Of a DNA stretch of 64,000 nucleotides, positions 17,661 to 52,824 are shown in pieces. Below the pieces are notes generated by a model. That model did no database searches and was not told the DNA's origin. It saw only the letters and a program-made list of their open reading frames with translations. Source of the DNA: Isoetes taiwanensis (lineage: Eukaryota; Streptophyta; Lycopodiopsida; Isoetales; Isoetaceae); NCBI GenBank assembly GCA_021234155.1, contig JAJEKV010000147.1:683910-747909 (forward strand). The letters are read 5' to 3'. Made by a program: the position numbers and the translations under genes. The first letter of the stretch is position 1, and the number at the start of each line of letters is the position of its first letter.

Positions 17661-17777
17661 CTAGCAACAAGTTCGCAAATTTGTGCGCATCTTCAGCCAC
17701 CAATCCTGACCATGTGCTGTGTGCTAGCAACCCTTCAATTTTCTTCTTATATGAACCACACATTTTGTAATTGATTT

Positions 17778-21935: not shown

Positions 21936-22095
21936 AATGGTCAACAACCAATGGCTCAAAACAAAAGCCCTTGCATAATGGTCAACAACCAATGGCTGAC
22001 AACAAAAGCCCTTTTTTTGTGCGTGTGGTGCATAATGGTCAACAACCAATGGCTCACAAGAAAAGCCCTCTTTTTGTGTGTGTGGTGCATAATGG
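21936..22095. repeat. Minisatellite, about 2.5-3 units
   Basis: Units of about 55-60 bp built on ATGGTCAACAACCAATGGCT, an AAAAGCCCT..TTTTTGTG stretch and TGTGTGGTGCATAATGG. The related arrays at 28808-28970 and 51528-51750 have different unit numbers. Confidence 0.85.
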
Positions 22096-22335
22096 GCACA
22101 TGAAGGGCTTGAAGGCGCATGTAGTGCAGTTTCCCCGCCGGCAACACATTTCTTATCATAACTTTTGATCCAGAGCTCTGTTTCAGATGATTTTTATTGC
22201 GTTGGAAAGCTCTCTCCGAGATCTTTTTGATAGTGTATGATATGGATATGTTTGGTTAAGTTATCTATGCTAAAACAGCAATTTTTCGGCCGGGTCTGGT
22301 AGGTTTTCACATCCTACTAGCTGATTAATACAGGA

Positions 22336-22536
22336 TTGCGCTATTGGATATTGTTTTATGGCTCATTCCGAATGAAGATTGCAAACAATTACCATGCATT
22401 TTTAGATTTTGAGGCAGTTATTAAGCAAATTCCAAGGCTTCTAGATCCTTTTGCTAACAAGCAGAAAAGTTCCCCACTTTGGTTTCTCACCACAAGAATC
22501 CATGGAGGCCAAACGCTGCTGTTAAATTCCAGTTGA
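22336..22536 (+). other. 66-codon frame conserved in three repeat copies
   Basis: MRYWILFYGSFRMKIANNYH to LLLNSS. The same frame is open at 29205-29405 and 51987-52187 with about ten amino-acid changes and no stop or frameshift. No family is recognised. Survival of an open frame of this size in three copies is mild evidence at best. Confidence 0.25.
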
Positions 22537-22789
22537 AAAATGTTTGTGTATGGGTGTTGCAAACTTTATGACTTTCAGAATAATGGGATCAATCTGCTCT
22601 ATCTTTATGGTAACTTTTACTTATGTTCTATTTGTTTTATTGTGATGCAATTCAAAAGCTACAGTACATGTGATGAAAGCCTCAAATGAATTCTAGTTTT
22701 TTTCTGGTTTGAATTCTAAAATTTTTGTCACACCGGGAGGGAGGGGGTGACGTCCCTAAGGCCCCGAAGGGGCCAAATTTTTTTTTTTG

Positions 22790-22935
22790 CAACACAAACC
22801 ATTAACATCCAACATATAAAAATTAAATCCCCCAACATATAACGACCAACACATAACAACCATTGACATCAACAACCAACACATAACTACCATTGACATT
22901 AATTAACACAACCATTGGGTCCAACACATTCAAAT
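22790..22935. repeat. A/C-rich degenerate tandem repeat
   Basis: Repeated CAACACATAACAACCATTGACAT-like words of about 20-28 bp. Also present at 29665-29810 and 52440-52585 in the sister segments. Confidence 0.65.
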
Positions 22936-22941
22936 TAAAAT

Positions 22942-23232
22942 CCCCCTTAAACCCCCTTTGGTTTGGGTGCATATTCACACGGGGGGTGACGTAGGGCAGC
23001 GAGAGCCCTCATAATTGTATTTTGCACGTACGAAATCAACACCATATAGTATTCCGCTTGAAATCTTATAGTATTTTGCGAATCTTGTTATACAGTATAG
23101 CAAATTTTGTACTTGAATACCCCACAAACGAGGAACTTTACGTACGATGTAGATTAAGGAATAAGGGGTGAATATGCCTATCTAACAGCTCTCGTTGCCC
23201 GGAGTCAACCCCCGTGTGAATATGCACCCAAA
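22942..23232. mobile_element. Inverted-repeat element, truncated by the duplication junction
   Basis: Starts with CCCCCTTAAACCCCCTTTGG. The complementary end is cut at CACCCAA by the start of copy B. The full version is at 29817-30131. Confidence 0.75.
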
Positions 23233-25388
23233 GTGTAAGCGCATGGTCCAGTGTGTTATGATCTTTTCTGAAACCTGCCTGGTATACAGAGCGTTTTCCT
23301 TCCTCTTCTGCCCAAGTGCTTAATTTGCTTTCCAACAAACTGCCCAGGATCTTTGCAAAAGTGCTGCCAATTAAGATAGTTCTATAATTGGTAGCCACTT
23401 TCTTGTCTCCAGATTTGTAAATTGGATGGACACGGTTTATCCTCCAATTGTCTGGCATCCCTTGCCTGATACACATGTTCAATATTCTTGTGAGGATGGA
23501 AATCATTCTCTGTCCGCCCCATTTGAAAAGTTCCACACAGATGCCATCAGAATCATGTGCTTTGTTGTTTGCCATATTGACCAGGATATCTTTAACCTCA
23601 TCCTCTAAAAATAGATCCATGTTTGAGGCCAAGATTGGCATGCTATCAGCACCTTTTTTCTCATAAATATCTTTAACTAAATTTAATAGGCCATCTATAT
23701 CCAAAATCGATCGCTCTCGATTTACCTTTTAGGATGTTCCAAAATGACACGGGCTTTCTTGAAGTGTTCAGCTAAAGCCAATTGTCTCATTGGCAAAACA
23801 AGTTTCTTATTTCTCAAAGAACTTCCGTACCATGCAGGTTTGCGAATGCATTTTTGTGGCAAACTCTTTCTTGCTATCTCTTTTCGGAATCCCACCATGG
23901 TTTTCCTACTGTGATTACATGGTTTTCCTTGTAGGTGCCTTTTGAGACCGCAAAGGTTTCGCCCCGCAGATCTAGCAACAAGTTCGCAAATTTATGCGCA
24001 TCTTCACCACCAATCCCCGACCATGTGCCGTGTGTGCTAGCAACCCTTCAATTTTCTTCTTATATGAACCACACATTTTGTAATTGATTTTCAGTCTAGG
24101 AGTGATGTGGTTCGCTGCCAATCAGCTTTTGTGTCAATCTTAAACACCAAGTGCAGTGGAGTGTGATCAGATTCCACAAGTTTCTCTCCTACAAAACAAT
24201 CCTGTAGAAAGTCTACAATTCGTGCCATGATGTAATCTATTGTGCTTGCATCTGCATAATTTATGCATGTGAAATGCCCTGATCTTGGAAATAATCTTAT
24301 CCCATTGATGATTTTCAACTGACATACAGTACCGAGTTCCAACAAAGACTCTCCCATGCTATTTGTATTTGTATCCTCAGATGTTCTGCTGAAAAACATA
24401 TCTTCCACTTCGTCCAAATGCAGATTTGATATATCTTCATATGTTTGACATTGCTTTTGGCCAGTACGAGCATCGAAGTCTCCCAATACAAATACTTCAC
24501 CCTTGGATTGATATCTTATGATATCTCGAGCATAGCATCTTGAAAGGGTCATCCCCGCATAAATTTCATTTTGTCATAGATCTTTGCGTTGCTTGGTGCA
24601 AAATAACATATTGCAAAATAAAGATCTCGCCCCTTAGTTTTGACCTGTAACCAAATATATTGGTTATTGTCATCCTATTTGCACAATTTGGCATTCTTGT
24701 GCCAATTGAGATTTGCTGAAAACAAGCAATCCCACCAAAACCACGCCCCCCCCTCGGCAATTTGTCATTCGGATATGCCCAACTAGAACAAACCCTGCCA
24801 TGTCTGGAGGTAATTGGCAAAATTGGTGTGCCCATGTCTCCGTGAAGAAGACCAAGTCCTGCTCCTGCCATACATCAGATGTAGCATTCACCTTTGCTTG
24901 GTTTAAACCATGTGCATTCCATAGGCTTATTCTCAAGACCCCGCTTTTCCTATTGCCTCTTCCCTTTTGTGACAATTGCTTTTTCCCTCCTCGGTCCGGA
25001 TAAGCAACAAAACCTAATGCCCTTGCCTCCTTAACTCGGGTCCATTCTTTCTTCTGTTTTCCAACCGAGTTGGAGTTAGATCCACATCAAGCCAGATCTT
25101 TTCCCTTTCAAAGTGTTTTTGCTTTTGGAGGATTCTCGTCTCTTGCTTCCTTGTTTTCCAATTTAACCAAGATTGGACGAGTATAAGATCCCTCGGCTTA
25201 CCCAATCTCCTTGCAGATATGACCTTTGGTTCATGCGGATACATGGTATTTGCAAAGAATTTATCTCGATGGCCATGATGTCTTCCTCTTCAATTTACGG
25301 AATACCGAGGAGATCTTAAGGTTATTAGCCCTAGCCTCTTGGTCAAACTTTGTTTCTCACGAGATGTATTGGTGGTGCAGTTTCATTT
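23233..25388 (-). pseudogene. LINE-A duplicate: RT part, endonuclease, ORF1 end
   Basis: Repeat of 16916-19075. The RT frame 23704-23138 (DIDGLLNLVKDIYEKKGADS to QAGFRKDHNTLDHALTL) stops at the duplication junction, so motifs A to C are missing. The endonuclease is at 24975-24091 with VFVLGDFDARTG, STIDYIMARIV and VESDHTPLHLVF preserved. The ORF1 end near 25.05-25.37 kb is broken into several frames. Compared with copy A it has many more frameshifts, nearly all at CTG/CAG positions, so part of the damage may be a sequencing artefact. Confidence 0.85.
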
Positions 25389-27883: not shown

Positions 27884-28658
27884 TGTGACGCTCCCCGAGC
27901 AGGGTTGCCCTTAAGGCCATATCTGCATAGGCGTGATTTAGAAGGTGAGGCGAATCATAAGCTTTCTATATTAATTTTGTAGGCGATTACTTTTTGCGAC
28001 TTGAACTGTTTCATAGAAACTCTGGCGAACCTTGCCAACGTTAATGTAGTAAGTGGAATAAATAAATTAGATGTCAATTCACATACTACTTAGAGGATTA
28101 AGGAAGCCTATTATATTTAGCAAAATTTGAGTAATTGTTGATTTTTTGAGTATTCTACTATGGTCCACTAGAGCTAGCAAACAATTACTTGATCTACAAT
28201 GTTGTTAAGGGATAATCTATGATCCTAAACACTTAGATCCATGGAACTGGAGGCGAAACTCTAGATCTGAGCTTAAGAATGCATGGCTAATTTAAGAAAG
28301 GCCGACGGACGAAATGGTAAAACTTTGGCGAAAGAATATAATTTATTTTCAATAGTAACCTATTGAGCTTTAGTATCTCATTTTCGAAAATATTCAAAAT
28401 ATAGCCATTTGGCTATAAATAGCCCCTTAAGGGCAACCCTGTCCCCGAGCCTATATGATGCTCCCATCATATAAATACGAGAAATTCCCCACCCATGGCA
28501 ACTCACTCACCACGGAGAGGCCCTCCGTCTGACTCGGACCACTTGTGATGGGCAAATGTCCACATGAAGGGCATGGAGGTGTCATTCATCCCACGCCTTC
28601 TATGGAAAATCCTATATAGTGGAAGCATACATACATGTTAGCAGCTAGCAACAATATG
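27884..28658. repeat. LTR fragment split by hAT MITE
   Basis: Copy B counterpart of 21561-21784: TGTGACGCTCCCCGAG at 27884-27899, then the MITE, then TCCCCGAGCCTATATGATGC from 28442 on. Confidence 0.85.
27900..28441. mobile_element. Non-autonomous hAT-type MITE
   Basis: 542 bp with perfect 17-bp terminal inverted repeats CAGGGTTGCCCTTAAGG / CCTTAAGGGCAACCCTG and an 8-bp target duplication TCCCCGAG (27892-27899, 28442-28449). CAGGG-type ends with an 8-bp duplication are the hallmark of the hAT superfamily. No transposase frame is present. The paralogous site at 21569-21576 has a single TCCCCGAG and no insertion, which fixes both ends to the base. Confidence 0.95.
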
Positions 28659-28807
28659 TAGCATAATAACAGGGGGTTTTCTTTGTGTTTTTGTACGCTT
28701 TTCACTAAGGTTTTCCTATGATTTCGTGATGTATTCAAATGGATGTACTAATGCGTACATCTAGAGTGCACCATTTCGAGCCATTGATTTTGCTTTTTTT
28801 TTTTTTT

Positions 28808-28970
28808 CAATGGTCAACAACCAATGGCTCAAAACAAAAGCCCCTTGCATAATGGTCAACAACCAATGGTCGACAACAAAAGCCCTTTTTGTGCGTGTGG
28901 TGCATAATGGTCAACAACCAATGGCTCACAAGAAAAGCCCTCTTTTTGTGTGTGTGGTGCATAATGGGCA
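28808..28970. repeat. Minisatellite, copy B
   Basis: Duplicate of the 21936-22095 array, with CTGAC altered to TCGAC and poly-T length changes. Confidence 0.8.
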
Positions 28971-29204
28971 CATGAAGGGCTTGAAGGCGCATGTAGTGCG
29001 GTTTCCCGCCGGCAACACATTTCTTATCATAACTTTTGATCCGAGCTCGTTTGATGATGATTTTTATTTGCGTTGGAAAGCTCTCTCCGAGATCTTTTTG
29101 ATAGTGTATGATATGGATATGTTTGGTTAAGCTATCTATGCTAAAACAGCAATTTTTCGGCCGGGTCTGGTAGGTTTTCACATCCTACCGGTGATTATCT
29201 GAGA

Positions 29205-29405
29205 TTGCGCTATTGGATATTGTTTTATGGCTCATTCAGAATGAAGATTGCAAACAATTACCATGCATTTTTAGATTTTGAGGCAGTTATTAAGCAAATT
29301 CCAAGGCTTCTAGATCCTTTTGCTAACAAGCGTAAAAGTTCCCCACTTTGGTTTCTCACCACAAGAATCCATGGAGGCCAAACTGCTTTGTTAAATTCCG
29401 GTTGA
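29205..29405 (+). other. 66-codon frame, second copy
   Basis: Counterpart of 22336-22536, still open, with Q to R and TLLLNSS to TALLNSG changes. Function unknown, probably chance. Confidence 0.25.
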
Positions 29406-29816
29406 AAAATGTTTGTGTATGGGTGTTGCAAACTTTATGACTTTCGAGAATAATGGGATCAATCTGCTCTATCTTTATGGTAACTTTTACTTATGTTCTA
29501 TTTGTTTTATTGTGATGCAATTCAAAAGCTACAAGATACATGTGATGAAAGCCTCAAATGAATTCTAGTTTTTTCTCGGTTTGAATTCTAAATTTTTTTT
29601 GTCACACGGGAGGGAGGGGTGGCGTTCCTAAGGCCCCAAGAAGGGGCCAAATTTTTTTTTTTTTGCAACACAAACCATTAACATCCAACATATAAAAATT
29701 AAATCCCCAACATATAACGACCAACACATAACAACCATTGACATCAACAACCAACACATAACTACCATTGACATTAATTAACACAACCATTGGGTCCAAC
29801 ACATTCAAAATAAAAA

Positions 29817-30131
29817 TCCCCTTAAACCCCCTTTGGTTTGGGTGCATATTCACACGAAGGGGGTGACGTAGGGCAGCCGAGAGCCCTCATAATTGTATTT
29901 TGCACGCGTTTAAATCAACACCATATAGTATTCCGCTTGAAATCTTATAGTATTTTGCGAATCTTGTTATACAGTATAGCAAATTTTGTACTTGAATACC
30001 CCACAAACGAGGAACTTTACGTACGGTGTAGATTAAGGAATAAGGGGTGAATATGCCTATCTAACAGCTCTCGTTGCCCGGAGTCAACCCCCGTGTGAAT
30101 ATGCACCCAAACCAAAGGGGGTTTAAGGGGG
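29817..30131. mobile_element. Inverted-repeat (MITE-like) element, complete
   Basis: About 315 bp. The ends are long inverted repeats: left CCCCTTAAACCCCCTTTGGT then TTGGGTGCATATTCACAC, right the reverse complement ending GGGGGTTTAAGGGGG. Similarity continues inward through GGGGGT(T)GAC..GGGCA.CGAGAGC, about 65-70 bp per arm. The spacer is AT-rich and non-coding. No clear target duplication. Superfamily unknown. Confidence 0.75.
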
Positions 30132-36391: not shown

Positions 36392-36715
36392 ATGGCTCCA
36401 AAACAAAAATTTCCAGCAGAACAAGAACAATTGGAAGATGTTGATGTCCCAGATCATTGCAGAGAAAGGCCACTGCCTTCAAGTTTCTCAGCTAGCTTAC
36501 TTCAAAACATGCCATACCAATTTGAGTTGAATGTCCCTGTTCCTTTGCCTACCTTTGATTCTAGCATGAGTGCTAACAACTTTTTGAGAATATTTGAAGA
36601 TTACTACAGGGATTATGGTTTCAAGAAAGGATGCAAGCTTTCAGAATTTGAAAAATGTTTCAAAGATGAGAGTGAAGCTGGTGCTTGGTTAACTTATAAG
36701 CATGATTTCATTAAT
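36392..36715 (+). pseudogene. gypsy-1 gag, 5' part
   Basis: Starts at MAPKQKFPAEQEQLEDVD. Proline-rich PVPLPTFDSS is followed by helices NFLRIFEDYYRDYGFKKG and CKLSEFEKCFKDESEAGAW, the typical retrotransposon gag layout (the conserved ..A..W.. helix start). The reading stops at HDFIN where the 10.3-kb insertion begins. The continuation (EKLMGTTSWDELVKKFLDRF) is found at 47078, one base out of phase. Gag is the capsid protein of the retroelement. Confidence 0.75.
36710..36715. repeat. Candidate target-site duplication, left
   Basis: ATTAAT, repeated at 47056-47061. Both copies sit exactly where the gag reading breaks off and resumes. The sequence is short and AT-rich, so chance is possible. 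Confidence 0.5.
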
Positions 36716-36934
36716 TGGATAAAATAACGCAATTTTGAGAATTTTGAGCACACCTTATTTGCTCAAGCACGAATACTTTCACCTAGTACTCGACCCCAAC
36801 AAATATGAGGTAATTAACATACACATATACATACAAATTTTGTGTTATACTTGTACGTGTACATGACACTCGTATAAGCTCAATAATGGCCCTACATCGT
36901 ACACCAATAATTCACTTCAATAATTTTACTTCAC

Positions 36935-36941
36935 TATAAAA
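36935..36941 (+). promoter_or_regulatory. TATA box of small gene 1
   Basis: TATAAAA in the context TTACTTCACTATAAAAACGG, 43 bp before the ATG at 36978. The second tandem gene has the same box (CCTCACTATAAAAGC) 42 bp before its ATG. Confidence 0.7.
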
Positions 36942-36977
36942 ACGGCTTCACGAGGGGGTAGAGGCCATTCATCTTCC

Positions 36978-37273
36978 ATGGCTTCCTCGATGCCTCGTCC
37001 AGAGCACATCCGCTCTTTCAAGTGTTACTTGAGCTACAACGATCCGGGCGACGCGCTAGAAATAGCGTTAAGCTTGATCCATGGCTCTTATCTAAAGCTG
37101 ATGGACCTGCTAGTGCTTGCGGTGAAGCTCACTCAGCGTTAAAGTCCATATTTATCGGCTTCCCGATCGGGGAGATCTATGAGCTGAATGGCATCACGAG
37201 CTTTGATGTTGATGACGAAAGTGAATCTTGCACCGCTAATAATGTAATAATGACATGGGTACCTAATAATTAA
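36978..37273 (+). pseudogene. Small tandem gene 1, frame-broken
   Basis: The ATG frame gives a 54-residue product (MASSMPRPEHIRSFKCYLSY...) to a TAA at 37142. The better continuation is in the next frame (37022-37273: KLDPWLLSKADG, then FIGFPIGEIYELNGITSFDV). Matching blocks in gene 2 (LLLDPYREEKLWG; YEISGITTTDPEGE) support this second frame and a single frameshift between. Aligned N-termini share H-I-x3-K-C-x2-S-x2-D. The family is unknown. No signal peptide. The promoter with TATA is conserved between the two copies. Confidence 0.45.
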
Positions 37274-37560
37274 GTAAGGATGTAATAGCATTACGATTAA
37301 GGATGTAATATCACATTACCTTAAGCGAGTATATTGTAACGATGTGCTATCCCACCTCCACTTATTACGCAAAGCCGTCATTGAATTCAATCATAGCTAA
37401 ATTAGATCAAGCAAACATGTTTTGAAACATACGCATATTAGTACGCATACATATATCCATACGAAAGATGTATTATACTTGTATTTATACAACGGTCTTA
37501 TACACGAGCAATAATGGCTCAAGTCTACCCCAATAATTCACCTCAATAATTCTACCTCAC

Positions 37561-37567
37561 TATAAAA
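37561..37567 (+). promoter_or_regulatory. TATA box of small gene 2
   Basis: TATAAAA, 42 bp before the ATG at 37603, with an upstream CAATAATTCACCTCAATAAT block shared with gene 1. Confidence 0.7.
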
Positions 37568-37602
37568 GCATCTCACCCGGGGCTAAAGTTCATTCCTCTC
37601 AC

Positions 37603-37860
37603 ATGGATTATTTGCCTTCCTCAATTCACCACATCGAGGCGATCAAGTGTTTAATGAGCCACTCTGATCTTGTTGGTTGCCTAGACAGGCATCTTCTTCT
37701 TGATCCCTACCGCGAAGAAAAGCTTTGGGGGTGAGATTAGGTTCTCATGCGTCAATTAGTGTAATGATCCATCCGGATTTGGCTTCCCGGTTTAATGAGC
37801 TATGAGATATCGGGGATCACTACTACAGATCCCGAAGGTGAATGAATCAATTGTTTAGCA
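37603..37860 (+). pseudogene. Small tandem gene 2, frame-broken
   Basis: Diverged tandem duplicate of the 36.98-kb gene. From MDYLPSSIHHIEAIKCLMSH to a TGA at 37734 (43 residues). Then in other frames GFGFPV and SYEISGITTTDPEGE, which parallel gene 1. The promoter, ATG position and block order match gene 1, so the duplication includes the promoter. The unit is about 600 bp (roughly 36.80-37.40 and 37.42-37.98 kb). Function unknown. Confidence 0.4.
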
Positions 37861-38106
37861 TTGTATAGTGTAAGAGCTCTTGTGTTGAGATGGAAAACGC
37901 AGAGCGTAACAAATAATAACTAGTCTATTGTAACTTTCATGTTATGAATGATATAGTAATTATGTAAAAGAGCATTGCATACCTCAAGAGTTCTCATCAT
38001 CGCCCTTAGCTTCTTTAGCCACTAATTCTTGCAACCGAGCCCGAACACTTGGGGATCACCAGCGACAATGGCCTGGGTCTCACGGCCCAACCATAGTCTA
38101 TTGTTT

Positions 38107-41100
38107 TCAAAGGTTGGTAGCGTGGCGGGTCATTAGGATTGGGTCTCCAATTCTTGCTCCAACAATCCCTATCTTTGCATTGCATATGAGGTTCCCTTTC
38201 GCAACAGGTTCAAACCAAGAGACAAACACCTCTTCATAATGTGGGAGATTAGGGTCCTCATCGGGTCCCTGTTTCGCAAAAGCCATCCATGTCGGGGCGT
38301 TATCATGTGGTCCGATTAGCAAGAGCATTCCCTTCTTGACATCTTGGTAGGGGTCGAATATTTCAACCGGGTTCTTGGGTCTACCCGAGAAAGGCCCTAC
38401 GTAATGAGATGCTTCAATGTGCTCATCCACAAACACTCTTTCGGTTCTTCCAATGCACTTTGCCCGGTCTTTGGGCCAGAAATCTGAATGAGCGACTCTA
38501 CCGGGCTGCACGTCACCTAGCACTTTCAAAGAAGGTGGACCAGTAGTCAATAACTTCATTCATATATGTGTTGGACCATGACTTATCGCCAACTCTAGAA
38601 ATAGCTGCCCAAAGGCATCATGTACTTGGCAATAGAAGCTCTTAATGCACCTATATCTTTCAAGCTCCCATATGGTGCGGGACCTTAGGTGACCCCTCTC
38701 GAATCATAGGTAAACCTTGGGCATCCTCCTTCCACATTACGGTTCCCTTTTCAGGGAGCCACTCCCTATGCCCCGGCCTCATCTTGTAGAACATTAGTGG
38801 CCATCCATCCTTCATGCAAAACTTGAAGAGTAGAGGTTCAAGTGACCACATAAACGGTCCTTCTTATCGGGGATAAATCCTTTCAACTAATTCCTTCCAA
38901 TCAGAACCTCGTCACAAGGTAAGGTGAAGGAGCCTTTGAACTACACCGCTGAAGAGTTGCATAAGCTCTGGAATAGTCAATGCATCCGATCTTCTCATTA
39001 GAGTAGAGTAGTTTCCAAATAGGGCATCTATGTCATCGTGGGTGTGTCCAACCATCATGAATCCCAAATGCACTTGATCAAATACACCTAACCAAACCAA
39101 GTATGACAAGTAAGAGAAAAGATATCTATTCTTATTTCGACCGAGCAATTATCTAGCTGCAAGTAAAGCCTCCTAGGCAACTTGTTTGCTACCATGGGGC
39201 CTTTGATAGGAGGCATAAAATCATTTCTACCGCCATTCATCATTTTTGTCCTAAGGTTATCTGTGTTTAAAATTCTTTTGACCCTTATTTGCTTTTCGGG
39301 ACGTCAAGATCTCTCAAATGGCCCCAATTATCCTCGATTTATTCTCCGGTGTCTTCAAGGTATGATTCAAGGATCCCACATGAAAATTAGAATCATCGGG
39401 CCGGAGGTCCCGGAGAAGTGGCCCAAGGCACCTATACCATGGCCCGTGCATGAGAGCACTGTAACACCGACCTTCGGTCGTTCACCCCTCCATACGAGAC
39501 TTTGCTAGCTTCTCTAGGCGAGGGACCATGGTCTTATTCTGATCCATCTTATCATGTATAATGGTTAAAAGCGCTTTCGGGGAGATCTATGCGACAAAGC
39601 TCTCGAGGACCGATAAAGGCTCCCGCATGAAATCTGGGCGTCATATGTGATTTTCTCTCTATTGCAAGTACCCCTTCTTTCGTTTGGATCTCTCGGTCTT
39701 AGCAAGCTTTTCCTTTATGACAATACAGGTGTTACACTTGGAAAATGCTATCCTCTTAGCTATTGCTACCTCCGAATGATTCTCTTTCCAAGCGCATGTA
39801 AATGACCTAAGGAGAAATATGCTTGCTGTCATCATCGTAGAACGGAAATATCTACTTCTTGGTGTATATCCTTCTTAGTCAAGACCTAAGGTAGCCTCTT
39901 AACATTTTGTTCTGTTACCCTCGCTTCGTAATTTTCGGCGGTGTGGCATCGTCTCTGCGTTTTCATCTATGAACATGGATATAAAGCATTGCCACCAAAG
40001 TATGAGACCTTGGCTTCTTAGACCAAGTATTTCCGTGCTTTCGGCAATGCGGGTGGCCGTCATTGAAGAGCTTCTTCCACTTGTAAAAGTGGAAATGGGA
40101 ATGCCATAGGCTTTATGCCATGCTTTCACGCACACCGTTTGTTATTCAACATCGGTTTTGCGGACTACACCATTTTTCGAGCAAAGATCTAGCATGTTAT
40201 ATGCAAAAAGTTGTGCGCTCGAGGACTTCATGTTCCAAAGAAAAGGTTCTCATGCAAGCTATCTCTGGGATGTAAAATTTGCACAAAGATCGTTTCATGC
40301 AAAGACGTTGATGACTGAAGTCTAGAATAGCCTCAAAGACTAGTTTTTCTTTCACATTTAGTCCGTGGCCGGGCGGTTTCGGGTCTCCGATTGACCATGT
40401 CAGAAGGTCTCTTTTTGGTGATGCCAATTTCGGGTCTAATGGAGTAAGGTTCATTCTCCACATCCTTCTCCTTCACCGCGAAACCACAAGAGTAGAAACC
40501 TGGAATGTTATCAACGAGCACGAGGGCTATGGGCCATCTCACAAGGTCATGCGGTTGGGGCATTTCGCACAGTGCCCGGCAAACAAGATAGAGATCTTTT
40601 CGGGCATTGGAAAAATGTTCATGATAGTAGCGGCTATCGAGCCTTCCCCTAACTTCACGTCGGACCAAAGATGGTTTGGATCGGCAAAACGATAACACCA
40701 TAGGCATAAGCCATGTAGCAAGCATTCATGCATGAGTGTGCACGCGCCTTCTCAACTAACTCATCTCTAGAAAGCCCTTGCACATGATTCGTCTCATTAG
40801 TGGCTAACCCCTCATTCCCTCCTCGGCCCCGCGGTGTATCCTTTTTATCCGACTGGTGGGGTGCAAGCTTCCTCATGTCTATCTAGTGGAGCAACAATGT
40901 CCTTCTTGTACCACAACACAAAAGTCCCCACGGCTTCACCCATTTTTTTTCTATTTCCAATTCGGAATTGGTAGCGAATTGTCCATCCGAACATTCACAA
41001 TTGAAATGACAAACCATACCCTCCCGACGGTCGAATTGTGATGGCTTTTCTAAATTGTGGACTCTTCCTTTCGCCACCTTCTTCCCGGCCAGATACAAAT

Positions 41101-41188
41101 GAATTACATCAGCCATCCTCCAAACAAGAGGTCGTGAATAGCGCGGCCGCGATCCTAGTGAGCAGAAAGCACTGTGATCATAAACCAC
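38107..41188 (-). pseudogene. DUF7869-like gene, frame-broken
   Basis: A chain of minus-strand frames reads as one protein across frameshifts. Upstream (41188-40333): MADVIHLYLAGKKVAKGRVH, FNCECSDGQF, a DELVEKARAHSCMNACYMAY helix, ALCEMPQPHDLVRWPIAL. Middle (40463-39899): a Cys/His-containing segment, then VCVKAWHKAYGIPISTF, the helix-turn-helix-like block that usually precedes the core of this family. Core (39148-38912): LQLDN, then after a frame change NKNRYLFSYLSYLVWLGVFD and FMMVGHTHDDIDALFGNYS. The LQLDN...ENKNRY...GHTHDDID signature is that of DUF7869 proteins (recalled, not searched), large families in ferns, mosses and several animals and algae, often repeat-associated. Tail (38851-38107): LFKFCMKDGWPLMFYKM and EEVFVSWFEPVAKGNLI. 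Function unproven; acidic/His residues in GHTHDDID suggest a metal-dependent nuclease-like core. Confidence 0.65.
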
Positions 41189-41426
41189 TACAAAAAATAT
41201 GAACTGAAAAATAAGAAATGGTCACGACATTCGCCACCGCGATCTTATCGAGCATGGGTAAGAACGCGGTCGCGCTAGTTGCAAGCATTCACACTAGCTG
41301 TTTCAATAAGAACTCGTTCAAATCAAATTTCGAGGCTAGCTAGTGGGTTCAACTCTAAGTTATCGATATCTGGGAGTTCTTTGGTCAATAGCAAGTGTAG
41401 ATGGTTGAAGGTATCGCGACCGCGAT
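41141..41426. repeat. CGCGGCCGCG-type near-palindromes, left cluster
   Basis: GCGCGGCCGCGATCC at 41141, CACCGCGATCTT at 41234, AACGCGGTCGCGC at 41262, ATCGCGACCGCGAT at 41413. All lie at the 5' end of the DUF7869-like gene or upstream of it. They share the CGCGG[CT]CGCG core seen at 42.3-42.9, 44.56 and 46.68 kb. Confidence 0.75.
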
Positions 41427-42456
41427 CTCGTGGAGCACCAAAGTTAAACGATTGACTTACAGAATAAGGCATTACTCCTACCTCACAGAATACGGTGTTT
41501 AGTGTCATAAAAACAGTGTTTAGTTTCATCCACATAGAGAAAGAAAGTATATACTTGAAACACGTTTACATTGTATAATAAACACACCAGAGTGCACAGT
41601 TTTGCTTAGAACATCTATTTTTACATAGTTGCAACAAAGTATCAGGAGGTATCTTATCAATCCATGCAATACATAGTGAATGTTAGTGCGAGACTTCTGA
41701 GGTTGCGTTATAATTGAAATTGATTGCATTGCCGAGTCACGCAGCACCACTTCCGATGAGGGATATGCATCGAATAGGCCTTTTACCTCGGGAGAAACCC
41801 CGAATTGATGCGATGCGCAGAATTCGAGTGTGTAGTGGCGGATTGCAAGCGGATTATCGCCCGCGTCGGCGCCTTCAATGGATGTGGAATTCGCGAGCAA
41901 ATCCTTGCCCAAACTTGGCCCAAATTTTAGGGCTCCAGCGCCTCGAAGATCTTGCAAAACAATGAAATTTGAATTGGCTTTTCCCGCTTTCTCGAATTGG
42001 TTTGTTCTCGAATTCAAATTTTGCAGTCGCTGTCCGTCCGTAAACCGGATATTTTGGAGGCATTTATGGCTGGATAAAGTGTCAGGTCCGAAATTATGAC
42101 CCGAAATTGAACGCGGACGTCTAAGTGGATAAAGACCTTTCGTACGGGTTACTGGCCTTTCCGGACGGGTATATTCGCGACTAACCGCATTAATGCCGAG
42201 GGAATAAATACGGGCGGCCGGCCGGTAATTATTACTGCCGGCGCAGACTACGACGCCATTATGGCTGGCACGTTTTTTCACGCGCCATCATGAGGGGCGG
42301 GCATTTAATTTCCGCGGCCGCGTTCTATAAATTGAAACTCAAAACATTCAAAAACTAATTTCTACTCCGCGATTTCATTCAGCCTAAGCTTCGACCTCCG
42401 AGCGCCCCCGACCCACTCCAAAAAAACCCATATTTCGTACTGAACCACGCGATCCC
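41189..42456. promoter_or_regulatory. Candidate bidirectional promoter region
   Basis: Lies between the minus-strand DUF7869-like gene and the plus-strand spliced gene. G+C-rich and CpG-rich around 42050-42320. Carries near-palindromes at about 41233-41277, 41413-41426 and 42311-42323. On the plus side TATAAAT is at 42326-42332, about 130 bp before the ATG at 42457. A long minus frame (42281-41526) runs through it but shows no protein-like composition, so I treat it as chance. Confidence 0.5.
42326..42332 (+). promoter_or_regulatory. TATA box of methyltransferase-like gene
   Basis: TATAAAT, immediately after a CCGCGGCCGCG palindrome (42311-42322). The spacing between palindrome and TATA suggests the palindrome could be a proximal promoter site. 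Confidence 0.5.
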
Positions 42457-42503
42457 ATGGCACCTAAGGACTCCGTCAGAGAAGGTATTTTCTAACATTT
42501 CAG

Positions 42504-42745
42504 CTCAGCAAGATCGCGGCCGCGATCTTGCCTACTAGAACTTCTATTGTTTTCATAAGTATAGATGCTCAGCAAGATCGCGGTCGCGGTCTTGCTTGAT
42601 AGGTTTTATAATTTCTAGATAGCGTTCTTCATAAGTGTAGCTGCTCATCAAGATCGCGGCCGCGGTCTTGCTTGATTGGTTTTATAATTTCAAGATAGCG
42701 GTCTTCATAAGTGTAGCTGCTCATCAAGATCGCGACGCTGTCCGG
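42504..42745. repeat. Intronic tandem repeat with palindromic core
   Basis: Three units plus a partial of about 64-76 bp, each beginning AGCAAGATCGCGG or ATCAAGATCGCGG and ending CATAAGT-TAG-TGCTC. Unit 1 holds a perfect 22-bp palindrome at 42509-42530 centred on GCGGCCGC; units 2 and 3 have one-base variants (CGGTCGCGG, CGGCCGCGG). All lie in intron 1 of the methyltransferase-like gene. Confidence 0.85.
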
Positions 42746-42849
42746 CTGAGCATAGATTTTCTTTATTTGCGATGTTCATCGATTACTAGTGTAGTAGGTC
42801 ATTAGTTTCGCGACAGTGATGTTTTCTTGCCGTGCTTAAGTCCTACACA

Positions 42850-42910
42850 AAGTCGCGGCCGCGATTGTGTGGAGTTCTATTTTAGCTGCTTGGCAGGATC
42901 GCGGTCGCAT
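42850..42910. repeat. Two further CGCGG[CT]CGC sites in intron 1
   Basis: AGTCGCGGCCGCGATTGTGT at 42851 and GGATCGCGGTCGCATTTC at 42897, both before the exon 2 acceptor at 42990. Confidence 0.7.
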
Positions 42911-44549
42911 TTCTCTACAGTAGTTTAAACCTCTTTATTGCACCACATTATGCAGCCTACCAGGCACTCACTACAGGCTTTTGTTTACAGCACTTGCTCT
43001 CTTCCGAGGACCAGATGTCGAGCCAGTCCGTATTATAACCCCTTCCAATGAAAGGAAATGGTGTATCGAGATTGCACAGGCTATACCGCACATTAAGGGT
43101 GATCGCAGAAAGGACCTGTGGCTGTTTCTACGGACTGAAAAAGCTGAGGACGTTGAACAAGTTGGCATAGTGGTGGCAATGTGGGAAGGCACGAAGAACA
43201 ATGTGCAAGATGCCATCATATGCAGCATTGAGGACCCACAAGCATTGCAGGTTTCGAGTACATTTTGAAATGGGCAATTATGACCCGTCTTTGATGACGG
43301 CAAACAAAATGAACAAGCCACCACGAGGGAAAAACGTCCCCGTCGCTAAGGGGTATGGCTGGTTGTTGCCATCCTATGAATCTCTCTCTTTGTCGTATAA
43401 AGGGAAAGAGACATATTGCTCGGGTTCTCGACATGCGAAATGGTTTGTCTACGACAAGAAGCCTCCCGAAGAAATGCCTTGAAAGCGGTTCGGGAAGAAG
43501 ATGCCCTCCGTGATGGACACCAATTGGCTAAGAGTCGTGGCCCAAGAAAAAGAGTGTGAAGCCTATTGCTACTTTGGGAGAGACCTCAAGACCAAAAGAA
43601 ATTGCTCAAGAACCACAATCCACGATAAACCCCTCCGGTATTGTTAACCCTACTCTTCCTATTGCTATGAAGGCCCCGGATAGCAATACATCCGTGGATT
43701 TATTCCAAAAATTCCCTCCTTTCAAAATTAGCCTTAAGAATCGACACCTCGTGAGGATAGCCCGCAGCCCAGCCAGTTCTCAAACCCCCTCGTTATGAAT
43801 GCCTCCTCTAAACTAGCATTGACATGGCCCCAAGCACCGCCATTCGGTCGAGTTGAAGTTCAATCAAGAGGAACGCAAGATGGCGAGCAAACCACTCGAA
43901 GCTTGAGCAGTTCAAAAGGTTCTACCCCTTAGGGGTTAATTGGTTTACAAAGATTTCTATTTTTGATTGTGAACTGCACCAGCAAACTTGACACACGAGA
44001 ACGCGGTCAAATGATCATGTTCAAACTACGGTTAAAAGCTTCAAGACATACCCGACAGAGGTCCTCACCCCCGCCGACGCCGTTCCGCTTTGACCCTATT
44101 ACCGGGTAACTAATTCTTTTTATCTTTTGGACACTCGTTATGTAGATTTGACTCGACGGTTGTCTATCTTTTCGGAGGAGGGTGACATGGAGCAATCCGT
44201 AAGATTTGAAGGGCAAGAAATTTTATATTATTTCGGCAACCCAAGATTTTGTCTTTGCACAACTCCTTTGTTCGATCGCCGGCGAAGTTCGAAAGCAAAG
44301 AACGAATTTGCCAAAGTATATGCTAGAAGAAGATCGAGGGTGCTGAACGGAAATCTTACGCACAAAGGAATATATAGAGTTGAGTATTCAATGCAATGAA
44401 GTAATTGCAAACACCGTGTACAGAGAGCCACTGATTGAAAAACTGCAACAACTTCGTCATCAGCACAAGGCTTATGGTTGCCCTCCACAAGGACCTATAG
44501 GGACAGCCAAAACTTCAGCTTGAAAGGTATTTATTTGTTTTCTACTCGC

Positions 44550-44571
44550 CAAGTTCGCGGCCGCGATCTTG
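44550..44571. repeat. CGCGGCCGCG site in a second intron
   Basis: AAGTTCGCGGCCGCGATCTT inside the short intron 44529-44596 of the methyltransferase-like gene. Confidence 0.75.
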
Positions 44572-46678
44572 ATGACCTTGAAATTGCTTCTGCAGGATTT
44601 CCATGAAATTGCAACGACCACCTTGAAAGTGCAGGAGCTTAAGGATGAAAAGCAATTCATTTTTATGGATGAGAAGGTTTTCAAGAAGTTAATGGAAGTT
44701 GCTAGTCTGTGGGTGAGTCGTAAACTCAGTGACGATCATGGTGAGTTTCCAGACAAGCCATTCAAAGACTTCTTTAACAAGACCTGGCTCCGGTTACTAC
44801 GAGGTATGTCGAATGCAGAGTTGTCACAGCTGCTCGATGAGATTATAGAAGGCAAGACCTATTTAAAGGTGCAGTCAGGTTATAGCGGGAGATTTGATTG
44901 CAGACAACGGGCAATTGACATCAGAACCCTCACTTTTATGAGGCGCGAAATTTTGTCTTATGCCTCAAATTCTTTGCAAAAGGATTTCGATAGTGGGAGG
45001 AATTGCTTCGGGCTTTTCCCTGATTTCACGAACGAGAGAATACCGATATATCGGATCGACATACATACGTAATGCGTGAAGGCTAACTATAACAAGGATC
45101 ATACACTAGGTAACCTACCGTAGCCTTTTGGAGCCAATCAGAATATTCTAAAGCCGTAAGAGGCTAGAAAAAGAAAGGAAAAGAAAAATATTGTCATAGC
45201 AAAGTGACAAAGGATGGCATCCCTACTTCCTCCCAAGTGTCGAGAATCGAATCGATATTTATTGACATCCGAGGGATAAACAAGGTATGGGATTGCAAGA
45301 AATACACAGATCTATTTACAAGGATAGCTACCATGACGGATGCCAAAGTTTATCACTTGGTCATTATCATGCGCTTTCGATGAATTTGCCCAATTGCTTG
45401 TTGTTCCGAAGCAAATTCAGCATGTGGCTACCTATCTTTAGGTTCCTATGAAGAAATGGGATGGGAGAGCAAAAAGAAGGGTGAAAGAACATCAGTACTT
45501 TATTAGTCATATGTGCATTAACGGAGTGATGTTCGTGTAGCACCCGCGGCAACCGAGTTGGAGCTTCACCTATATCCACACGGCAAGGCTCCTAAGTCAA
45601 CACCATTGCCTCCAATGCCGCTAACAGGTAATGAGGATGCCGACGAGAAGATAAAAAAGAAATATCAGACTCTTTTTACAGGCAAACCAAGATTCAAATG
45701 GGCGGCAATGGAAGGAGATCTTGTATTGAAATGCCAGCTGAAAACCTCCTATGCCTACCATATTGTTGAACAGCTGGTGCCGACTGATGGTTGTGTTCTG
45801 GATTTCTTTTCGGCTGGGACGGCTTCTCGTGTTGCTCTTATGCAAGGCAAAAAGAGCGTGGCTTTCGAAAGTTCAGGTAAAGTGTGCCGTTTCCTGAGGG
45901 CGTTCTTTGAAACGCTTGATAAGATGGCCAATCCAAGTGCCGATGGGTTTGAGGACGAGCCGAAAGCAGAGAATGTTGACCCTGATCCAGCTCAACCCGA
46001 CATCAGTATCACCCAAAACACAGATCTATCAAAGTTGGGTTCCATTTTGGAAAACCTCGATGCTAAGTCCTACGAAGAGAGAATGCAAGAAACAAAGCGC
46101 TTGCTTGAAGAGACGGAAAAAGGTATAGAAGCCCTGGAGCCCACTTTCCAAAAATTGCATGCACTTAATGAGAAGCTTGATGGGTACATGCCTTTTTTTG
46201 ACAGCTTAACATAAGTTTGAATACGTGGGCGTAGAACACATGGAAACAGACCCAAAGCACATGGAAGCAGACCAACAGCACATGGTCATTGACCAAGATG
46301 AGGTTCTTGGGTCACAGGAGCATCAGGTACACAGCAAGAAGCAGAAGCTCTATCATCCACCTCAGAATGCTACTGGCTTGAGCTCTTGCAAAAACGAACT
46401 TATAGGCGGGCAAAGTTAAAGGATGAAGAATGGGAGCCCGATTCACATCTGCGGCAGCGCAGATCGCAAACGCCATGGGTGTTCAGATTCCAGAGGTCAC
46501 AGGTTATACAGAGATGGACACAACACAAGCTATTGAATTGGGTAGAGAGCATGTCCATCGCATGGCCAATGAAATGGGTGTGATACCTGATCAAGTATCC
46601 TTCAATGAAAACTTTTGTTTCGAAAACTTTGGTTTTGTCTTTACCCATATCTTTTACCATATGTTAAATGCTAAAAAT

Positions 46679-46845
46679 AATCGCGACCGCGATCCTCTGT
46701 AGCAATTACATGGCTTTAAATACTGAATTTTGTGTGATATCCTTGCTCCTCGGTACCTTCTTTTAACACAATGCTCTCATATGGTTTTAATAAAAGGCAC
46801 ATTCTTTCGTCTCCTTTCAGCTGCGAAACATCGCGTTCGCGCTTC
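46679..46845. repeat. Right-end CGCG sites
   Basis: ATCGCGACCGCGATCC at 46680 and ATCGCGTTCGCGC at 46830, downstream of the methyltransferase-like gene near the right end of the insertion. Confidence 0.65.
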
Positions 46846-47055
46846 TTGCGAGAAGTTTTGACACTCCCTCCTACTACGTTATACTCGCGGTGAACCTTTG
46901 CATTAGCAGTAAAAACTATATTTCCGAATAAGACTGAAGCATTTGCAGAATTTGTGCAAAAAAACGCCAACTTTTACTCAATTGGTAGTAGTTTTTGCAC
47001 TATATGGCAACCCGCTAACCTATTTCATGCTAAACGAGAATTCCAAATTTCTCTA
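46703..47055. other. Right end of the 10.3-kb insertion
   Basis: Non-coding apart from a chance minus frame. Ends at TTCCAAATTTCTCTA before the right ATTAAT. Confidence 0.4.
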
Positions 47056-47061
47056 ATTAAT
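47056..47061. repeat. Candidate target-site duplication, right
   Basis: ATTAAT, partner of 36710-36715. Gypsy-1 gag resumes immediately after it. Confidence 0.5.
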
Positions 47062-48033
47062 GAATTCGTGCTTTTATGAGAAGTTAATGGGTACCACCTC
47101 ATGGGATGAACTCGTCAAGAAATTCCTGGACAGGTTTGGTAAGTTGGCTGCTCCCAAAGATTTGGTTAATGAATTGCAAAGTTTCTCTATACATGCAGGG
47201 AGAGTGTGAATCAGTACAAAGAAAGATTTAGCACATTCATGAGCAGGTGCCAAAGAGCACAGGTCACAATTCCCACACTTTTCTTAGTAACTGCTTTCAT
47301 CAATGGTCTGGAAAGAAGACCAGATATCCAAAGGAAATTGCTTAAGATCCAAGCTGCTAAGGGATTCGATTCCATATACAAAGTTTTTGCCAAAACTACT
47401 GATCTGACTCAGATGCTCTCTACCTTGCTTGATAAGCACCATATCTCCCACCATGGCCATGATCTTTTTTACCCTGATGCTACTGATGCACATTATGATC
47501 ATCACCCTTCCATCCCAGTTTATGCCATACAGAAAGAAAAGAAGAAATCTAAGGAGGAGGAAGCTAGTTCTCAAGTTGCAGAGGTTAAATCAGACCTATC
47601 TAAGGTTACTGAGGCTTTAGCAGAATTGACCAAACAACTAGTTGAGCTCAAAACTGCAAGAACAGGTAAAACTTACCCTGAATGTATCCATTGCAATAGG
47701 AATACTCATCCATCAGAAATTTGCTATTGGCAAGTGTGTTCTAAATGCAATAGGAAAGGCCACTTTGGAAAAGAATGTCCTGTTTGTTCTTTCTGCAAAG
47801 AAGTTGGTCATACTGATGTTAGATGTGCTGTTAAAGAATACTTTGCCAAGCAGGAACAAGAAAAGAGGTCAGAACCTAAGCCCTCTGTCAGATTTACTGA
47901 ACCAAGTACTTCAATAAGGTTTATCCAGGCTACAGAAGCTCCCAAAACTGAAGAAGTTATGGCAGTGCAAACTAGAAGAATGAATGAAGTCCATACAAAT
48001 GATAGCTCCATCTCCACAGCAAAAATTTGGTAA
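47062..48033 (+). pseudogene. gypsy-1 gag, 3' part
   Basis: Resumes gag after the insertion: GTTSWDELVKKFLDRFG at 47090, a one-base frame change at about 47195 (ESVNQYKERFSTFMSRC), AFINGLERRPDIQRKLLKIQ, and two zinc knuckles: CIHCNRNTHPSEICYW, then CSKCNRKGHFGKECPVC followed by CKEVGHTDVRC. A Lys/Glu helix (EVKSDLSKVTEALAELTKQL) lies between capsid and knuckles. These knuckles bind the element RNA. The frame ends at 48033 and overlaps the protease frame (47984). Confidence 0.85.
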
Positions 48034-51369: not shown

Positions 51370-51527
51370 GAATATGTAGCATAATAACAGGGGGTTTTCT
51401 TTGTGTTTTTGTACGCTTTTCACTAAGGTTTTCCTATGATTTCGTGATGTATTCAAATGGATGTACTAATGCGTACATCTAGAGTGCACCATTTCTGAGC
51501 CATTGATTTTAGCCTTTTTTTTTTCAG

Positions 51528-51750
51528 TGGTCAACAACCAATGGCTCACAACAAAAGCCCCTTTTTTGTGCGTGTGGTGCATAATGGTCAACAACCAATG
51601 GCTCACAACAAAAGCCCTCTTTTTGTGTGTGTGGTGCATAATGGGCACATGAAGGGCTTGAAAACCAATGGCTCACAACAAAAGCCCTTTTTTTGTGCGT
51701 GTGGTGCATAATGGTCAAGAACCAATGGCTCACAACAAAAGCCCGGGCAC
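51528..51750. repeat. Minisatellite, third locus, about 4 units
   Basis: The same 55-60-bp unit as at 21936 and 28808, here with an internal rearrangement: one unit ends GGGCACATGAAGGGCTTGAA and restarts at AACCAATGGCTC. Confidence 0.85.
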
Positions 51751-51986
51751 ATGAAAGGCTTGAAGGGCGCATGTAGTGCAGTTTCCCCGCCGGCAACACA
51801 TTTCTTATCATAACTTTTGATCCAGAGCCTGTTTGAGATGATTTTTATTGCGTTGGAAAGCTCTCTCCGAGATCTTTTTGATAGTGTATGATATGGATAT
51901 GTTTGGTTAAGTTATCTATGCTAAAACAGCAATTTTTCGGCCGGGTTTGGTAGGCTTTCACATCCTACCAGCTGATTAATACAGGA

Positions 51987-52187
51987 TTGCGCTATTGGAT
52001 ATTGTTTTATGGCTCATTCCGAATGAAGCTTGCAAAAAATTACCATGCATTTTTAAATTTTGAGGCAGTTATTAAGCAAATTCCAAGGCTTCTAGATCTT
52101 TGTGCTAACAAGCACAAAAGTTTCCCACTTTGGTTTCTCACCACAAGAATCCATGGAGGCCAAAGGCTGCTGTTAAATTCCAGTTGA
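51987..52187 (+). other. 66-codon frame, third copy
   Basis: MRYWILFYGSFRMKLAKNYH to LLLNSS, open, about eight residues different from the 22336 copy. Confidence 0.25.
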
Positions 52188-52824
52188 AAAATGTTTGTGT
52201 ATGGGTGTTGCAAACTTTATGACTTTCAGAATAATGGGATCAATCTGCTCTATCTTTATGGTAACTTTTACTTATGTTTTATTTGTTTTATTGTGATGAA
52301 ATTCAAAAGCTACAGTACATGTGATGAAAGCCTCAAATGAATTCTAGTTTTTTTCTGGTTTGAATTCTAAAATTTTTGTCACACCGAGAGGGGAGGGGGT
52401 GACGTCCCTAAGGCCCCGACGGGGCCAAAAAAAATTTTTTGCAACACAAACCATTAACATCCAACATATAAAAATTAAATCCCCCAACACATAACAACCA
52501 ACACATAACAACCATTGACATTAACAACCAACACATAATTACCATTGACATTAATTAACACAACCATTGGGTCCAACACATTTAAATTAAAATCCCCCTT
52601 AAACCCCCTTTGGTTTGGGTGCATATTCACACGGGGGGTGGCGTAGGGCAGCGAGAGCCCTCATAATTGTATTGTGCATGTACGAAATCAACACCATATA
52701 GTATTCCGCTTGAAATCTTATAGTATTTTGCGAATCTTGTTATACAGTATAGCAAATTTTGTACTTGCATACCCCACAAACGAGGAACTTTACGTACGGT
52801 GTAGATTAAGGAATAAGGGGTGAA

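What the first reader, a model, noticed from the sequence alone, without database searches (positions are those of the whole stretch)
36716..47055. Candidate undescribed mobile element pairing a DUF7869-like protein with a DNA methyltransferase-like protein
A 10,340-bp block splits a gypsy gag exactly at a 6-bp direct repeat (ATTAAT at 36710 and 47056). Inside are divergent genes: minus strand with the LQLDN...NKNRY...FMMVGHTHDDID signature, plus strand with VLDFFSAGTASRVALMQGKK, a beta-class methyltransferase motif I. Repeat-borne methyltransferases could protect or mark the element's own DNA; a DUF7869-type protein could supply mobilisation. No known plant transposon superfamily is recognisable from the protein content.
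Basis: partly seen in the sequence, partly recalled or inferred. Interest (0 to 1): 0.88.

Follow-up and report, generated by a model that had tools for sequence, protein, structure and literature searches.

The report
Plant transposon with palindromes, methyltransferase-like partner
A decayed 10.4-kb jumping gene in what is probably a quillwort genome belongs to a large family that pairs a likely transposase with a ParB/DNA-methyltransferase-type protein and carries its own set of palindromic DNA sites, which suggests how such elements might recognise their own DNA.

Summary
The block is a real DNA transposon, but its ends and target duplication differ from the finding. It runs 36698-47073 (10,376 bp), with 26-bp terminal inverted repeats (22/26) and a 4-bp target duplication, TTAT; ATTAAT lies inside the inverted repeat. 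Two other copies, checked at both ends, have duplications ATTA and AGTT. The minus-strand gene is DUF7869 (PF25273). The plus-strand gene is its divergent partner: among the best 150 hits of each gene, 36 of 36 pairs within 20 kb are divergent. Related DUF7869 elements in the same genome carry an N6/N4 methyltransferase with a ParB-like stretch on that strand. In the window's subfamily both catalytic motifs are replaced (FIDIRG, VLDFFSAGTAS), yet stop-free copies show purifying selection (dN/dS 0.23). A similar ParB-methyltransferase gene is in print for a brown-algal Sola1 transposon (PMC12477816), so the kind is known. What I saw in no passage read: each of nine elements examined has a group-specific palindrome in 7-17 copies (12 control segments: at most 2). 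In the five with defined exons, 44 of 47 sites lie between the two genes or in the partner's intron. I read them as binding sites of the element's own protein. The genome is probably Isoetes taiwanensis.

The parts
36694..36697 (.). left 4-bp target-site duplication TTAT
   Evidence: equal to 47074-47077, in-frame gag join; two other copies have ATTA and AGTT
36698..47073 (.). whole transposon copy, 10,376 bp, genes broken by frameshifts
36698..36723 (+). left terminal inverted repeat AAGCATGATTTCATTAATTGGATAAA
   Evidence: 22/26 to right repeat; found near the predicted place in two other copies, 26/26 and 24/26
36818..37609 (+). two diverged tandem units (36818-36984, 37446-37609; 75%), each TATAAA-like box then a short ORF; possible small duplicated gene of unknown role
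   Evidence: coding status inferred; no Pfam match for the two ORFs
38110..40141 (-). DUF7869 gene remnants (likely transposase) in several frames: HDKMDQNKT, LQLDN, NKNRY, GHTHDDID, C-terminal part
   Evidence: PF25273
38915..39148 (-). DUF7869 core in one open frame
   Evidence: PF25273 81.2 bits, E 9.7e-23
40336..41221 (-). possible N-terminal part of the minus gene, several frames
   Evidence: ORFs only, no Pfam match; inferred
41140..42911 (.). main palindrome cluster between/at the start of the two genes: nine sites (41140, 41230, 41263, 41413, 42513, 42577, 42653, 42852, 42898); best is the perfect palindrome CAAGATCGCGGCCGCGATCTTG 42509-42530
   Evidence: 12 matches to ATCGCGRYCGCGAT (<=2 mismatches) in the window, all inside the element, 0.12 expected
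42458..42963 (+). possible first exon (ATG 42458) and phase-compatible intron 1 holding five of the palindromes
   Evidence: read from sequence; inferred
42964..43479 (+). partner gene, N-terminal pieces
   Evidence: ORFs; no Pfam match
44187..44396 (+). ParB-like remnant; better-preserved copies read YIISGNHSICAAQLL...LTDKEYIELSIQCNEV
   Evidence: hhalign of copies L025-L054 (not the window alone) to the ParB-like part of relatives E=0.044, reversed control 0.61
44526..44595 (+). likely intron (GT..AG) holding palindrome 44554-44567
   Evidence: intron inferred
44596..45069 (+). partner gene coding part, open
   Evidence: contiguous in the 672-aa frame of copy L034
45168..46211 (+). methyltransferase-like half: FIDIRGINKVWDC at the motif IV place, VLDFFSAGTASR at motif I
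   Evidence: (PF01555 E 0.045-0.14); dN/dS 0.23 in stop-free copies
46680..46843 (.). two more palindrome sites (46680-46693, 46830-46843), present with <=2 mismatches in most fetched copies
47048..47073 (-). right terminal inverted repeat
   Evidence: >=23/26 in 27 of 30 loci including the window
47074..47077 (.). right target-site duplication TTAT

Best explanation
This is a decayed copy of a cut-and-paste DNA transposon family with 26-bp inverted repeats and 4-bp target duplications, probably of the Sola type, in what is probably a quillwort genome. DUF7869 is the transposase (inferred). The divergent partner gene encodes a ParB-like DNA-binding part joined to an N6/N4 methyltransferase-type part. 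Across related families each group carries its own palindrome array, in the region between the two genes and in the partner gene's intron. I infer that the partner protein binds these palindromes of its own element, as ParB binds parS, and so controls the two divergent promoters and, in relatives with intact motifs, methylates the element. In the window's subfamily the methyltransferase half has lost its catalytic motifs but is kept by selection, so it would act by binding alone. Shown: ends, duplications, gene pairing, arrays, motif loss, selection. Inferred: DUF7869 as transposase, introns, binding, regulation.
For: Ends and 4-bp duplications. DUF7869 match; 150 of 150 scored hits over cut-off, out of 9,902 first-look candidates in the genome, 0 of 14 control genomes. 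Divergent pairing 36 of 36 within 20 kb, 27 of them at 6.3-7.15 kb, null mean 0.8 and maximum 5. Related elements: 4-bp duplications in 5 of 7 loci scanned; PF01555 E=5.4e-15 and 2.7e-16 on the opposite strand in E4 and E3; PDB relatives MboIIA, CcrMI, RsrI for E3. Palindrome arrays in 9 of 9 elements against at most 2 copies in 12 of 12 control segments; 44 of 47 sites of E2-E6 in the two gaps, 10.7 expected if uniform. dN/dS 0.23, 55 of 55 pairs below 1. Published parallel in Ectocarpus Sola1.
Against: No binding or activity was measured. ParB identity rests on a short motif and a published parallel; no PDB match for the ParB-like alignment, weak DUF6551 only (E 0.0086 and 0.03). Homology of the window subfamily's partner to the ParB-methyltransferase is weak by sequence: hhalign E 0.0066 and 0.044, with low probabilities of 5.7 and 1.2%, and no PF01555 match for the stop-free 672-aa and 671-aa frames. 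No partner gene was found in locus E1 and no methyltransferase exon in E8. The palindromes are only modestly more conserved than their flanks among copies. The DUF7869 model had pLDDT 36.8, so the transposase fold is not shown. Membership in Sola could not be tested. The palindromes could equally be bound by DUF7869 or a host factor. The relatives were chosen from the best hits, not at random.
Confidence: 0.6

Rival explanations
1. The palindromes are binding sites of the DUF7869 protein (or a fused DNA-binding part of it) used for transposition or self-repression, and the ParB-methyltransferase is a passenger with an unrelated role.
For: Many transposases bind internal or subterminal repeats (recalled). 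The arrays sit next to the presumed DUF7869 promoter as well.
Against: No site lies in the terminal gaps of E2-E6 (7.3 expected if uniform), where transposase sites are usually found (recalled); 20 of 47 sites sit between the ParB-like and methyltransferase exons. In the window, however, two of 12 sites lie 0.2-0.4 kb from the right end.
Confidence: 0.2
2. The palindromes are promoter or enhancer elements bound by host transcription factors, or intronic sequences with a splicing role.
For: They lie in the divergent region and in likely introns; in the window, by my reading, most share one orientation relative to the gene they lie in.
Against: Palindrome sequence changes between element groups while position stays; host sites would be expected to stay alike.
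Confidence: 0.2
3. The window subfamily's partner is not a methyltransferase relative at all; the likeness at motif I is chance.
For: No PF01555 match in stop-free copies; PF01555 only at E 0.045-0.14 for the window; canonical residues absent.
Against: Same place, strand and order in the element as the clear methyltransferase of relatives; weak but specific profile match (0.0066 against 0.98 for reversed sequences); ParB-like motif upstream in the same order.
Confidence: 0.2
4. One reading: element 36716-47055 with a 6-bp duplication ATTAAT.
For: ATTAAT does occur at both places.
Against: Gag out of frame at that join; the 12 bases outside the right ATTAAT are part of the inverted repeat found in 26 of 29 other copies; other copies have different 4-bp duplications.
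Confidence: 0.01

Closest known systems
Sola1-1_Ec32 of the brown alga Ectocarpus (PMC12477816; passages and part of the reference list read)
   Same: DNA transposon with a ParB-like plus N4/N6 DNA methyltransferase gene on the strand opposite the transposase; authors suggest such proteins bind and modify their own transposon and say similar proteins are known from green and red algae
   Different: 21.5 kb against 8-10.4 kb; the passages read mention no palindromic sites and no subfamily with lost catalytic motifs; whether its transposase is DUF7869 could not be tested
Sola2-Fanzor elements of social amoebae (PMC3627910; passages read)
   Same: inverted repeats of 12-21 bp, AT-rich 4-bp target duplications, accessory gene
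   Different: accessory protein is Fanzor1, not ParB-methyltransferase
Mariner elements of giant viruses with a methyltransferase (PMC3627910; passages read)
   Same: transposase plus DNA methyltransferase in one DNA transposon
   Different: different transposase family; also encode an endonuclease
Fungal DNA transposons with TET/JBP dioxygenase (PMC12730594; abstract and section 4.2 read)
   Same: DNA-modifying accessory gene thought to counter silencing
   Different: erases or alters marks rather than writing them; other superfamilies
DIRS elements with Dam-like adenine methyltransferases and LINE/DIRS/Gypsy elements with cytosine methyltransferases (PMC5890265; passages read)
   Same: mobile element with its own DNA methyltransferase
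   Different: retrotransposons
Bacterial ParB-parS (recalled)
   Same: ParB-like motif with palindromes of 14-22 bp in arrays
   Different: partition system of chromosomes and plasmids; no methyltransferase-fused transposon; binding here not shown

Membership tests
PF25273 (DUF7869) | profile match over curated cut-off | tested here: met
   81.2 bits single frame, 101.6 bits read-through, cut-off 26
TIR (DDE-type) DNA transposon | terminal inverted repeats plus constant-length target duplication | tested here: met
   window and two copies: 26-bp repeats, 4-bp TTAT/ATTA/AGTT
TIR (DDE-type) DNA transposon | RNase H-like DDE/D catalytic core in the transposase | tested here: inconclusive
   model pLDDT 36.8; predicted strand/helix order b-b-b-b-a-b-a-b-a with D in IDGMD, QLDN and QIDQ is suggestive only
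Sola superfamily | 4-bp target duplication | tested here: met
   rule for Sola2 read in PMC3627910
Sola superfamily | homology to Sola transposases | not testable with these tools
   no Sola transposase sequence or profile was available; Bao 2009 not held
ParB-methyltransferase accessory of algal transposons | N4/N6 methyltransferase on the strand opposite the transposase | tested here: met
   for relatives E3, E4: PF01555 2.7e-16, 5.4e-15; exon found by tblastn in 6 of 8 loci
ParB-methyltransferase accessory of algal transposons | same, in the window's own subfamily | tested here: inconclusive
   PF01555 below cut-off or absent; hhalign E 0.0066
active N6/N4 DNA methyltransferase | motif IV D-x-P-Y and motif I F-x-G-x-G (names recalled) | tested here: not met
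   window subfamily: FID[IV]RG in 28 of 30 loci, VLDFF[SL]AGTAS in 24 of 30, the rest not matched by my patterns; relatives: AD[IL]PY in 6 of 8 loci, VLDAFSGSGTT in 2 of 8
ParB-parS | ParB-like fold | tested here: inconclusive
   motif GG[NT]HS[YF]KA in 5 of 8 loci, region by tblastn in 7 of 8; no PDB match; DUF6551 E 0.0086
ParB-parS | palindromic sites bound by the partner protein | not testable with these tools
   sites found; binding needs experiment

The most novel reading that the evidence does not exclude
Eukaryotic transposons carry a ParB-parS-like self-recognition system: each family's ParB-type protein recognises only its own family's palindrome array, in the shared promoter region and in its own intron, and thereby controls, marks or shields its own copies. 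In some subfamilies the methyltransferase has decayed to a conserved non-catalytic part, which leaves DNA binding as the selected function.
Probability: 0.4. Interest if true: 0.85.

Novelty: new variant of a known kind. Interest (0 to 1): 0.62.

Why it matters
Why transposons carry DNA methyltransferases is open; the published suggestion is that ParB-methyltransferase proteins bind and modify their own element, and the passages I read name no sites. Here are candidate sites, different in sequence between groups but equal in place, which can be tested by a simple binding assay. A subfamily that keeps the protein while losing the catalytic motifs separates binding from methylation. The elements look very numerous in a land plant (9,902 first-look DUF7869 candidates, 150 scored), so they bear on genome annotation, where DUF7869 genes may be counted as host genes.

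Tried and rejected
The 6-bp ATTAAT duplication and the 36716-47055 borders: rejected. That the element is unique or the pairing accidental: rejected. Viral relatives: three scans of viral contigs and one phage search (DUF7869 piece only) gave none. AlphaFold of the window's methyltransferase-like ORF alone gave pLDDT 48.6 and of DUF7869 pLDDT 36.8; I ran no fold search on either, as matches would mean nothing. CpG decay as a sign of cytosine methylation: in 27 copies, transitions at consensus CpG are not raised in the noncoding tail (0.035/0.049 against 0.043/0.064 elsewhere) and about doubled in the ORF (0.064/0.060 against 0.030/0.031), so no strong sign either way. Excess GATC as a Dam-type target: 50 against 39.4 expected in the element, not pursued. 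NCBIfam gave nothing for the methyltransferase-like pieces. Conservation of the two 3' palindromes in copies is modest (mean minor fraction 0.053 and 0.032 against 0.075 for the noncoding tail), and other stretches near the right end are more conserved. Literature: DUF7869 in 0 papers; searches led to the papers cited; none of the passages I read describes the palindrome arrays, but Iyer 2011 and the 2025 Bostrychia paper, cited by PMC12477816, were not read. One scan of genome contigs was available and not used.
Full report
Ends and target. The reported borders rest on ATTAAT at 36710 and 47056. A repeat search showed an inverted repeat straddling both of these. Scanning all direct repeats of 3 bp or more between the two flanks, one pair of ends stands out: 36698 and 47073, with 22 of 26 bases of inverted repeat and a 4-bp repeat TTAT directly outside. 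The next best of 285 candidates has 15 of 26, and neither about 400,000 random nor 200,000 AT-matched pairs reached 21 of 26. Joining the flanks at TTAT keeps the gag in frame (EAGAWLTYEKLMGTTSWDELVKKF). At least 24 other short repeats also keep frame (the 25 rows shown of 141), one of them the 6-bp ATGAGA, so frame alone would not decide; the ATTAAT join is not among the in-frame ones. No gag relative was available to check the join.

Other copies. The window lies in a held genome of 1,658,258,908 bases in 1,110 contigs. PMC8566536 gives 1658.30 Mb, 204 scaffolds and 909 unplaced contigs for Isoetes taiwanensis (passages read); I take this as the probable host, since genome names are hidden. 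A search with the window's methyltransferase-like ORF scored 150 of 3,140 first-look candidates, the best other copy 97% identical, many with open frames, the longest 697 residues. In 30 loci fetched (the window copy and the 29 best others) the right inverted repeat was found 836-912 bases after the matched ORF in 27, and the 14-base flank printed after it differs in each; L046, L048 and L051 lack it. For two copies I predicted where the left end should lie and fetched 500 bases each: the repeat was there (26/26 and 24/26), and the 4-bp duplications match the right flanks, ATTA/ATTA and AGTT/AGTT.

The two genes. DUF7869 is over cut-off in the window. The genome gave 9,902 first-look DUF7869 candidates, of which 150 were scored, all over cut-off; 14 control genomes gave none. 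A search with the window's DUF7869 piece scored 150 of 7,215 candidates. Matching the two lists of 150 gave 36 pairs within 20 kb including the window; all 36 have DUF7869 upstream on the opposite strand, 27 at 6.3-7.15 kb and 9 at 8.7-19.1 kb; random shifts gave 0.8 pairs on average, at most 5. The other 114 in each list are unpaired, which says little as both lists are cut at 150.

Relatives. Eight other DUF7869 loci of 20 kb were fetched, chosen from the best hits with long open frames, so not a random sample; they fall into four pairs whose main aligned blocks are 92-97% alike: E1/E2, E3/E5, E4/E6, E7/E8. A scan for ends succeeded in 5 of 7 tried: AATG, TTAT, CTAC, AACT and, with some ambiguity, AATT, all 4 bp, with repeats beginning AACAA; E1 and E7 gave none, E8 was not tried. 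On the strand opposite DUF7869 most carry a gene with a ParB-like stretch (7 of 8 loci by tblastn; motif GG[NT]HS[YF]KA in 5 of 8) and a methyltransferase: AD[IL]PY in 6 of 8 loci, VLDAFSGSGTT in 2 of 8, the second methyltransferase exon by tblastn in 6 of 8, PF01555 E=5.4e-15 and 2.7e-16 in the two tested, E4 and E3, and for E3 PDB relatives MboIIA, CcrMI and RsrI. E1 showed no partner and E8 no methyltransferase exon. The name ParB-like rests on the motif (recalled) and on the Ectocarpus parallel; a profile of the region found no PDB relative.

The window's subfamily. At the place of motif IV it reads FID[IV]RG (28 of 30 loci; the other two did not match my pattern, which was written for this reading) and at motif I VLDFF[SL]AGTAS (24 of 30). 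This is not decay of one copy. Eleven copies picked for a full-length, stop-free, ungapped match give mean dN 0.049, mean dS 0.209, ratio 0.23, with 55 of 55 pairs below 1; the window copy against them is nearer neutral for its closest kin (0.031/0.056 with L028), as expected of a decaying copy. So the changed protein was kept by selection while the family spread. Its kinship to the relatives' ParB-methyltransferase is likely from place, strand and order, but weak by sequence (hhalign 0.0066 and 0.044, reversed controls 0.98 and 0.61; no PF01555 match for stop-free frames).

Palindromes. The window element holds 12 matches to ATCGCGRYCGCGAT (up to 2 mismatches), 0.12 expected, none elsewhere in the 64 kb. 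In 27 copies with a known right end, the window included, there are 65 matches inside (83 kb) and none in 15.9 kb outside. The five relatives counted do not have this sequence (0 each); they have their own. A de novo search found GTATTCCGGAATAC in E1, E2, E3, E5 (7, 7, 8, 13 copies), GTATGAATTCATAC in E4, E6 (10, 9), GTATAAATTTATAC in E7, E8 (15, 17) and ATCGCGGCCGCGAT in the window (7); 12 of 12 control segments had at most 2, Markov nulls at most 2; for E1, E7 and E8 the segment was set by homology, not by known ends. In E2-E6, 24 of 47 sites lie between the DUF7869 and ParB exons and 20 between the ParB and first methyltransferase exons, 10.7 expected together if uniform; none lies in the terminal gaps, 7.3 expected. 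In the window nine sites lie between and at the start of the two genes, one in a likely intron after the ParB-like stretch, two near the right end. Exons were called from open frames, without transcripts.

Reading. The pattern fits a protein of the element that recognises its own family's sites, most simply the ParB-like partner, with the arrays as operators or parS-like sites. For relatives with intact motifs it may also methylate the element, as proposed in PMC12477816 for a Sola1 element of Ectocarpus. For the window's subfamily binding alone would remain. The superfamily is probably Sola: 4-bp duplications and the Ectocarpus parallel fit, and PMC9033089 lists Sola1 in Physcomitrella (passage read), but no Sola transposase was available for comparison. 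The DUF7869 model was too poor to show the fold (pLDDT 36.8).

Verdict.

Noticed in passing
window 36818-36984 and 37446-37609: Diverged tandem units (75%) near the left end of the element, each with a TATAAA-like box and a short related ORF; possibly a small duplicated third gene.
   Followed up: partly
window 41529-42287 minus: A 253-aa stop-free frame in the region between the two genes, without Pfam match; coding or chance not settled.
   Followed up: partly
window 36698-47073 against flanks: CpG observed/expected is 0.89 in the element (1.28-1.34 in three noncoding parts, 0.93 in the left one) against 0.48 and 0.60 in the flanks, although the genes are full of frameshifts.
   Followed up: partly
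window 21569-23232, 28442-30111, 51371-52824: A repeated block, 96% and 89% alike between places; not identified.
   Followed up: no
window 10188-14434 minus: Copia-type retroelement with a 1,037-aa open frame, which suggests good sequence quality, so the frameshifts in the element are probably real.
   Followed up: no
window 15520-18467 and 23138-24573 minus: Two copies of a LINE-type reverse transcriptase element sharing nearly identical protein stretches.
   Followed up: no
L046, L048, L051: Copies of the partner gene without the right inverted repeat in the fetched flank; truncated or interrupted copies not examined.
   Followed up: no
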